A DNA stretch of 64,000 nt from Chitinophagaceae bacterium (GTDB lineage Bacteria; Bacteroidota; Bacteroidia; Chitinophagales; Chitinophagaceae): positions 1 to 64,000 of the forward strand of contig JADBXR010000010.1 in NCBI GenBank assembly GCA_020403425.1. Direction: 5' to 3'. Position 1 is the first letter of the stretch, and each line of letters begins with the position of its first letter. The position numbers were made by a program, and so were the translations under genes. Below the pieces are notes generated by a model, which saw only the letters and a program-made list of their open reading frames with translations, had not been told where the DNA came from and made no database searches. Below, piece after piece: positions 60,242 through 60,743 of this stretch.

Positions 60242-60743
60242 GTGGTGAGACGTGAGACGTGAGGCGTGAGTCGTCAGTCGTGAGTTTTTAGTGAGGTGAT
60301 CATTTTTGACAGCATCTGAAAACAGTGGGTCATATTCTTTTTTTCTTGTGTCAGATATTCCTGATGGATATAGCCAAGTTCAATGGCTATATCCAATGCG
60401 GTATCTATTTCAATAAGCGAACCTCGTGAAATTTTGGAAAACCGCTTTCTTTCGGTTTCGGATTTTCTTGAAAAACCTTCGGCTATATTCAAATGTACAG
60501 AAACGGCTGCTCTTCTGAGCTGTTGCGTCAAAGCGTATTTCTCCTCAGGCGGGAATGATCGGGTGCTTTTATATAAGCAGACGGTCAACTCCCTTGATGC
60601 AGAAAAGATTTCTAAGTGCGTGTGTGATAATTCGAGAAACATAAAATATGTTTATCTCAAATTACTTTATCCTTCAACCTAGTTATTAAGTATTTATACC
60701 TAATTCACTCACTGACTCACGTCTCACGCCTCACGACTGACGA
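60242..60743. mobile_element. heptad-arm inverted repeat element F enclosing a four-helix-bundle gene (candidate mobile/IVS-like element)
   Basis: Left gtgagac gtgagac gtgaggc gtgagtc gtcagtc gtgag (to 60284); right ctcactgactcacgtctcacgcctcacgactgacga (60708-60743). Core cgtgaggcgtgag 60258-60270 is the exact reverse complement of 60723-60735. Confidence 0.6.
60274..60642 (-). CDS. four helix bundle protein (23S rRNA intervening-sequence protein family)
   Basis: 122 aa; LRRAAVSVHLNIAEGFSRKSETERKRFSKISRGSLIEIDTALDIAIELGYI matches the family pattern. C-terminal LKTHD-stop is encoded by the repeat arm. Confidence 0.92.
   Translation of the reverse strand: MFLELSHTHLEIFSASRELTVCLYKSTRSFPPEEKYALTQQLRRAAVSVHLNIAEGFSRKSETERKRFSKISRGSLIEIDTALDIAIELGYIHQEYLTQEKKNMTHCFQMLSKMITSLKTHD

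What the first reader, a model, noticed from the sequence alone, without database searches (positions are those of the whole stretch)
60242..60743. Four-helix-bundle (IVS/S23-like) gene enclosed by element arms, with its C-terminus and stop encoded by an arm
Seen: the 122-aa four-helix-bundle ORF (60274-60642, minus) lies between the inverted heptad arms of element F. Its last codons ...LKTHD* are read from the left arm (plus-strand tcagtcgtgagtttttag). The right arm ends exactly at the stop codon of the P-type ATPase gene (60744-60746). Established: this family was first described in 23S rRNA intervening sequences of Leptospira and Coxiella, where the ORF sits inside an inverted-repeat stem, and the Avd accessory protein of diversity-generating retroelements shares the fold. 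Inference: element F may be the protein-coding (autonomous) form and the ORF-less elements its non-autonomous derivatives, i.e. an intergenic IVS-like mobile hairpin system.
Basis: partly seen in the sequence, partly recalled or inferred. Interest (0 to 1): 0.9.

Follow-up and report, generated by a model that had tools for sequence, protein, structure and literature searches.

The report
Mobile gene inside a repeat-built hairpin
A small gene of unknown function, familiar from odd insertions in bacterial ribosomal RNA, turns out to sit all over bacterial genomes inside DNA inserts whose two ends are mirrored short repeats, and these inserts come and go between neighbouring genes like a mobile element that carries no known transposase.

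Summary
A 122-aa four-helix-bundle gene (PF05635, 104 bits) lies between inverted arms of 7-nt repeats, ~508 bp inserted into the spacer between copA and recQ. That junction is empty in 18 congeners (net -4 to +28 bp), and the closest relative found carries an orthologous element.

This is general. All nine intact PF05635 genes of this genome, and most of 163 loci from about ten phyla, are enclosed by inverted arms of 7- or 8-nt repeats (AUC 0.91 against controls). Each element has its own repeat unit. The 5' arm is nearly always G-rich (105:8), and the gene nearly always reads in the direction of its neighbours (84:4). At conserved operon junctions, congeners show empty, full, arm-only or ORF-less states. 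The ORF is under purifying selection (dN/dS ~0.2). ORF-less hairpins in this genome share units with its resident ORF elements. The Coxiella 23S IVS also has heptamer repeats, so rRNA IVSs look like one niche of a larger, mostly intergenic element family.

No reverse transcriptase is present, and RAYT genes have different palindromes. How the element moves, and whether the protein drives it, is inferred, not shown.

The parts
60242..60284 (+). Left inverted arm of element F: tandem 7-mers (GTGAGNC type), G-rich/C-poor read 5' to 3'; also encodes the C-terminus and stop of the ORF
60274..60642 (-). Four-helix-bundle ORF (PF05635 / TIGR02436, 23S rRNA IVS protein family), 122 aa
60690..60699 (-). 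GTATAAATAC motif 57 nt upstream of the ORF start; about 190-fold enriched near these ORFs in this genus, regulatory role inferred
60707..60743 (+). Right inverted arm (complement of the left arm); ends directly at the copA stop codon
60236..60743 (.). Whole insert between recQ start codon and copA stop; junction empty in 18 congeners
8045..8112 (.). ORF-less hairpin, same repeat class (GTGAGTG)
21937..22105 (.). ORF-less hairpin (GTGAGTN with inner AATGGGC repeats)
26111..26221 (.). ORF-less hairpin, 8-nt unit AATTTGAG, matching the arms of the sdh-junction element L006
38078..38178 (.). ORF-less hairpin (GTGAGTC), unit close to element F
41777..41910 (.). ORF-less hairpin (GTGAGTA/GTCAGTA)
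47381..47458 (.). ORF-less hairpin, 8-nt unit AATGAGTG, matching the arms of the hypC-hypD element L008
47819..47893 (.). ORF-less hairpin, unit GTTTGGG, matching the arms of element L004
13049..13080 (.). Solo arm (ATTAGTA unit) at a junction where relative G182 has a full ORF element

Best explanation
Element F belongs to a large family of single-gene inserts with the same architecture as 23S rRNA intervening sequences (IVS), placed between genes of operons instead of in rRNA. SHOWN by sequence: a discrete ~0.5-kb insert with inverted arms built of 7/8-nt repeats, a PF05635 ORF in sense with the surrounding operon, empty sites in relatives, purifying selection on the ORF, and ORF-less or arm-only forms at orthologous and other sites. 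INFERRED: the operon transcript carries the insert as a long stem-loop. The IVS protein, a homopentamer in its solved relative 2GSC, binds the G-rich repeated units, one arm offering about 4-6 units. The stem is tolerated and probably cut by RNase III as in rRNA IVSs. The protein promotes copying or replacement of hairpins that carry arms like its own, in cis and in trans. Copying is more likely at DNA level (extruded or lagging-strand hairpins handled by host replication and recombination) than by reverse transcription.
For: Architecture: 9 of 9 intact PF05635 copies in this genome score above the 99th percentile of controls; 120 of 163 loci exceed the 95th percentile; AUC 0.91, p = 3e-66. 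Of 115 armed loci, arm period is 7 in 68 and 8 in 43; element length has median 486 (IQR 456-520). The 5' arm is G-rich in 105 against 8. The ORF is sense to both neighbours in 84, antisense to both in 4 of 108. Mobility: recQ-copA is empty in 18 congeners. The nuo, sdh, hemB-hemL and radC junctions each show several states among congeners: full, empty, solo arm, or other ORF-less hairpin. Unit of inheritance: between G000 and G182 the ORF dS equals flank dS at recQ-copA (0.56) and hypC-hypD (0.57), with dN/dS about 0.2. At hemB-hemL and pnuC-nadR the ORF dS is saturated while flanks stay at 0.35-0.85, and the arm unit differs there too. Across loci, arm similarity rises with protein identity (Mantel 0 of 2000). 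ORF-less hairpins match the resident ORF elements' units (0.56 against 0.19 for random sets, 0 of 2000) and were absent from 600 kb of two congeners without armed ORFs. IVS bridge: Coxiella's 23S IVS has GACAGAT heptamers of variable number and is cut by RNase III (PMC4990558).
Against: No direct evidence of movement, RNA processing or protein binding. No target-site duplication could be defined at the divergences available. At element F itself the arms diverged (cosine 0.34) although the ORF is vertical, so arms can drift without replacement. At hemB-hemL G178 kept the unit with a diverged ORF. Protein sequence and unit are uncorrelated below 55% identity, so no fixed recognition code. 43 of 163 loci do not exceed the 95th control percentile. 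Samples of 100 kb from two gene-rich genomes (G105, G069) hold no ORF-less arrays. Arm mismatches favour A.C over G.U on the ORF strand (149 against 89), opposite to expectation for selection on the sense-RNA stem.
Confidence: 0.6

Rival explanations
1. REPIN/MITE-like: the hairpins are moved by a Y1 (RAYT) or IS transposase elsewhere in the genome, and the PF05635 gene is a passenger or modulator.
For: Y1_Tnp (PF01797) occurs in all six element-rich congeners and in only 1 of 8 others tested. REPINs are hairpins moved in trans (PMC3116915). Some cyanobacterial PF05635 genes ride next to ISL3-type transposases.
Against: The RAYT genes inspected are flanked by their own, different palindromes (CTTTAG..., CCCTGAAAGGG...), not by 7/8-nt arms. 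Arms have no fixed sequence a transposase could read; every element has its own unit. The PF05635 gene, not a transposase, is the gene enclosed. Genome size and element load confound the correlation.
Confidence: 0.15
2. Retro-IVS: excised stem-loop RNA is reverse transcribed with the four-helix protein acting like Avd with an RT in trans.
For: The model matches the Avd fold (4DWL, TM 0.76-0.86; DGR RT complexes 8UB7/8UBB). PF05635 was noted as Avd-like (PMC10053308). Strong sense-orientation bias.
Against: No RVT_1 (PF00078) in G000, G182, G185 or G168, all element-rich, while element-poor G010 and G017 have one or two. The mismatch bias is opposite to a sense-RNA stem.
Confidence: 0.1
3. No mobility by its own machinery: arms are slippage-prone minisatellite or attenuator hairpins in operon spacers, and the PF05635 gene is an ordinary gene that tolerates them.
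For: Arms change length and unit fast. Similar heptamer arrays, partly in inverted pairs, are known in Xanthomonas and Nostoc as G-quadruplex repeats (PMC4692102).
Against: In 464 kb of this genome the only gene found inside such arms is PF05635, and all nine intact copies are enclosed. The gene and arms are absent together at empty junctions.
Confidence: 0.08
4. A regulatory or defensive cassette: the protein senses or binds its hairpin to control the host operon and is kept for host benefit, with spread by ordinary recombination of flanks.
For: Purifying selection on the ORF; elements sit in sdh, nuo, hyp, hem and nrd operons; a conserved GTATAAATAC motif upstream in this genus.
Against: Presence is erratic at each junction, with many losses and decayed copies; no conserved operon target.
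Confidence: 0.07

Closest known systems
23S rRNA intervening sequences (Coxiella, Leptospira) encoding S23p/IVP
   Same: Same protein family inside the loop of a terminal inverted-repeat stem, similar size (428 nt in Coxiella), sense orientation to the host transcript, tandem heptamers at the 5' end of the Coxiella IVS (PMC4990558)
   Different: Elements here lie between protein genes, not in rRNA; both arms are repeat arrays; unit is private to each element; no RNase III data
DGR accessory protein Avd
   Same: Fold (TM 0.76-0.86 to 4DWL); 2GSC and 4DWL noted as homologous in PMC10053308
   Different: No reverse transcriptase in this genome; sequence identity about 8%
REPIN/RAYT
   Same: Inverted-repeat hairpins in intergenic space, with a single-copy gene sharing repeats with non-coding hairpins (PMC3116915)
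   Different: No tyrosine transposase in the element; RAYTs of these genomes have other palindromes; arms are short tandem arrays
Heptamer arrays GGGAATC of Xanthomonas and GGGGA(C/T)T of Nostoc
   Same: 7-nt units, intergenic, and in Xanthomonas 70-75 inverted pairs per genome (PMC4692102); the solved PF05635 protein XCC0516 comes from Xanthomonas
   Different: No link to PF05635 genes was reported; flanks of XCC0516 were not available here
TAACTGA heptamer repeats of Beggiatoaceae
   Same: Intergenic heptamer sets also found in Cyanobacteria and Bacteroidetes (PMC4679880)
   Different: Mostly direct, rarely inverted; no PF05635 link reported

Membership tests
23S rRNA intervening sequence (IVS) | S23p/IVP-family ORF within the element | tested here: met
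   PF05635 104 bits
23S rRNA intervening sequence (IVS) | Terminal inverted repeats that fold the insert into a stem-loop | tested here: met
23S rRNA intervening sequence (IVS) | Tandem heptamers at the terminus (as in Coxiella) | tested here: met
23S rRNA intervening sequence (IVS) | Location inside a 23S rRNA helix | tested here: not met
   Lies between copA and recQ; no rRNA in the window or at 20 non-Bacteroidota loci
23S rRNA intervening sequence (IVS) | Excision by RNase III | not testable with these tools
   -
Diversity-generating retroelement (Avd) | Avd-like four-helix fold | tested here: met
   Monomer fold only, TM up to 0.86 to 4DWL; oligomer not modelled
Diversity-generating retroelement (Avd) | Reverse transcriptase in the genome | tested here: not met
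   No RVT_1 in G000
REPIN/RAYT | Y1 transposase flanked by the same palindromes | tested here: not met
   RAYT flanks carry other palindromes
IS element / MITE | Fixed terminal inverted repeat shared between copies | tested here: not met
   Each element has its own unit
IS element / MITE | Target-site duplication | tested here: inconclusive
   Junction alignments too diverged
Group I/II intron | Conserved ribozyme core | tested here: not met
   No Rfam match in the window

The most novel reading that the evidence does not exclude
A categorically distinct class of mobile element: one four-helix-bundle gene plus arms of private 7/8-nt repeats, spreading through operon spacers across many bacterial phyla without a transposase, reverse transcriptase or nuclease of its own, trans-mobilising ORF-less hairpins, with rRNA IVSs as a special case.
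Probability: 0.4. Interest if true: 0.92.

Novelty: new variant of a known kind. Interest (0 to 1): 0.82.

Why it matters
IVSs in 23S rRNA have been called selfish elements for over 30 years without any idea how they spread or what their protein does. If most members of this protein family live in intergenic repeat-armed hairpins, the element can be studied in hundreds of cultivable bacteria, at junctions with natural empty, full and decayed alleles. It would also explain several scattered reports of heptamer repeats in bacterial genomes, and would add a mobile element that moves without a recognised enzyme.

Tried and rejected
Single shared heptad family as the defining mark: rejected, units differ per element. 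Reverse-transcriptase partner: no RT in element-rich genomes. RAYT partner with the same palindromes: rejected. Known structured RNA: no Rfam match in the window; 20 non-Bacteroidota loci gave only two Acido-Lenti-1 hits in one locus, so these are not rRNA IVSs. Phage carriage: no hit in phages or viral contigs. Identical proteins on two Nostoc plasmids as a way to define ends: they lie next to ISL3-type transposase genes without arms. Deep protein-to-unit code: no correlation below 55% identity. Association of ORF-less hairpins with PF05635 outside the genus: not seen in 100-kb samples. Alignment-based collection search failed for lack of conserved stretches, so a single protein was used.

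Full report
1. The ORF at 60274-60642 (-) encodes a 122-aa protein of PF05635 and TIGR02436. AlphaFold2 gives a confident four-helix bundle (mean pLDDT 90) that matches 2GSC (Xanthomonas XCC0516, TM about 0.9), 2RLD (Bacteroides BT_0352) and, more distantly, the DGR accessory protein Avd 4DWL. Its arms are tandem 7-mers in inverted orientation. The ORF stop lies in the left arm, and the right arm abuts the copA stop. Overlap of the stop with the downstream arm is recurrent: 30 of 115 armed loci.

2. It is a rule, not a curiosity. The genome has ten PF05635 matches. All nine intact ones are enclosed by inverted arms, but each with its own unit: GTGAGNC, GGTGAAT, GTTTGGG, ACTGGAT, AATGAGTG, AATTTGAAA and so on. 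The tenth is a decayed relic. Across 163 loci from relatives, a phylum sample and named genomes of about ten phyla, the inverted-repeat score of the flanks has median 15.5 against 9.0 for 1165 shifted windows of the same loci (AUC 0.91, p = 3e-66). Members include Nitrospirae, Desulfobacteraceae, SAR324, Acidobacteriales, Thiohalocapsa, Anaerolineae and Clostridia, and cyanobacterial plasmids, for example between nrdB and nrdA in Nostoc edaphicum. Exceptions exist: a single-copy PF05635 paralog in the same genus without arms (L025, L026, L027, L055) and copies next to ISL3-type transposase genes in Nostoc.

3. Anatomy. Among 115 armed loci the period is 7 (68) or 8 (43), almost nothing else. 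The arm 5' of the ORF has 9% C and 27% G; G exceeds C in 105 against 8. Median element length is 486 nt. Both neighbours are co-directional with the ORF in 84 of 108 loci and both antisense in only 4. In this genus 10 of 28 elements carry an exact GTATAAATAC, mostly 48-62 nt upstream of the ORF, at 0.565 per kb against 0.003 in background. Folded as RNA, element F gives -155 kcal/mol against -108 for shuffles (z -7.5).

4. It is an insertion. Joined flanks were searched in 60 congeners. The recQ-copA junction is empty in 18 (net length -4 to +28 bp against the joined G000 flanks; in G010 recQ start and copA stop are about 2 bp apart). G182 carries the orthologous element, and G178 carries one at the recQ start. 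At the nuo junction, G017, G021, G003 and G176 are empty (14 bp), G000, G182, G178 and G174 are full, G170, G181, G013 and G162 keep only a solo arm, and G185, G168 and G195 hold a different ORF-less hairpin. At radC, G000 is full, G182 and G185 carry two unrelated ORF-less hairpins, and G178 has a 25-bp spacer. G182 has a full element at a junction where G000 and G185 keep a solo arm and G178 has 30 bp.

5. Arms and ORF largely travel together. Between G000 and G182 the ORF dS equals flanking dS at recQ-copA (0.56 against 0.52-0.56) and hypC-hypD (0.57 against about 0.58), with dN/dS about 0.2, so the protein is functional. At hemB-hemL and pnuC-nadR the ORF is saturated while flanks are at 0.35-0.85; there the arm unit is different as well. 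Over 24 orthologous pairs ORF identity and arm similarity correlate (Spearman 0.54, p = 0.006). Element F is an exception: a vertical ORF with drifted arms. Over all loci, arm similarity is 0.67 at more than 80% protein identity, 0.29 at 65-80%, 0.15 at 55-65% and background below.

6. ORF-less hairpins. G000 and G182 hold 90 and 50 arrays per Mb (20 hairpins per Mb each), while congeners G010 and G017 without armed ORFs hold 5 per Mb and no hairpin in 600 kb. Units of 15 ORF-less hairpins of G000 match its own ORF elements (mean best cosine 0.56 against 0.19 for random sets, 0 of 2000; G182 0.80 against 0.16). This fits trans-mobilisation or shared descent. The limit: no arrays in 100-kb samples of G105 and G069, which carry 11 and 9 PF05635 copies.

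7. Mechanism. What is shown is insertion, replacement, decay, sense orientation and selection on the ORF. What is inferred is binding of the repeated G-rich units by the IVS protein, whose solved relative is a homopentamer (Lin et al. 2006, cited in PMC4990558), and help in copying hairpins. An RT-based route is unlikely because element-rich G000, G182, G185 and G168 lack RVT_1. RAYTs are present in element-rich genomes but have their own palindromes, so trans help by them is not excluded but has no positive support beyond co-occurrence.

8. Known context. The Coxiella 23S IVS has tandem GACAGAT heptamers of variable number upstream of its S23p ORF, a 28-bp terminal stem and RNase III cutting (PMC4990558). 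Inverted GGGAATC heptamer pairs are known in Xanthomonas (PMC4692102). No paper in the searched library links such arrays to PF05635 genes in intergenic space; most subscription journals are not covered. I therefore class it as a new variant of a known kind, with a fair chance that it defines a new class.

Noticed in passing
window 49928-49990, within leuS 49055-51859 (+): A short heptad hairpin (GTGAGTGGTGAGTCGTCAGGCGTGAG ... CTTCACCACTCACC) lies in frame inside the leucyl-tRNA synthetase gene, adding about 12 residues relative to the Thermus enzyme near the start of the editing domain.
   Followed up: partly
L411 and L418 upstream of Y1_Tnp genes; L002, L301 and others upstream of PF05635: The same GGTATAAATAC motif occurs upstream of RAYT genes and of PF05635 genes in this genus, suggesting a shared promoter or repressor site for mobile-element genes.
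   Followed up: partly
L169 (pCC7120gamma), L170 (pCC7120alpha), L175 (Nostoc sp. HK-01 plasmid): A PF05635 gene without repeat arms sits beside transposase genes (ISL3 family at L169) on Nostoc plasmids; the same protein accession occurs on two plasmids of one strain.
   Followed up: partly
L025, L026, L027, L055: A divergent single-copy PF05635 paralog ('PDISxYQ') without arms is present in several congeners and looks domesticated.
   Followed up: no
115 armed loci: Arm mismatches are biased towards A.C over G.U on the ORF strand (149 against 89; 49 loci against 22), so G.U-compatible changes fall on the opposite strand; unexplained.
   Followed up: partly
L234, L236 (hemB-hemL junction of G195 and G010): Other repeat hairpins (CACAGA... 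and CGTCATCCCGAGC... types) occupy the same junction in congeners, so operon spacers look like shared landing places for several hairpin families.
   Followed up: no
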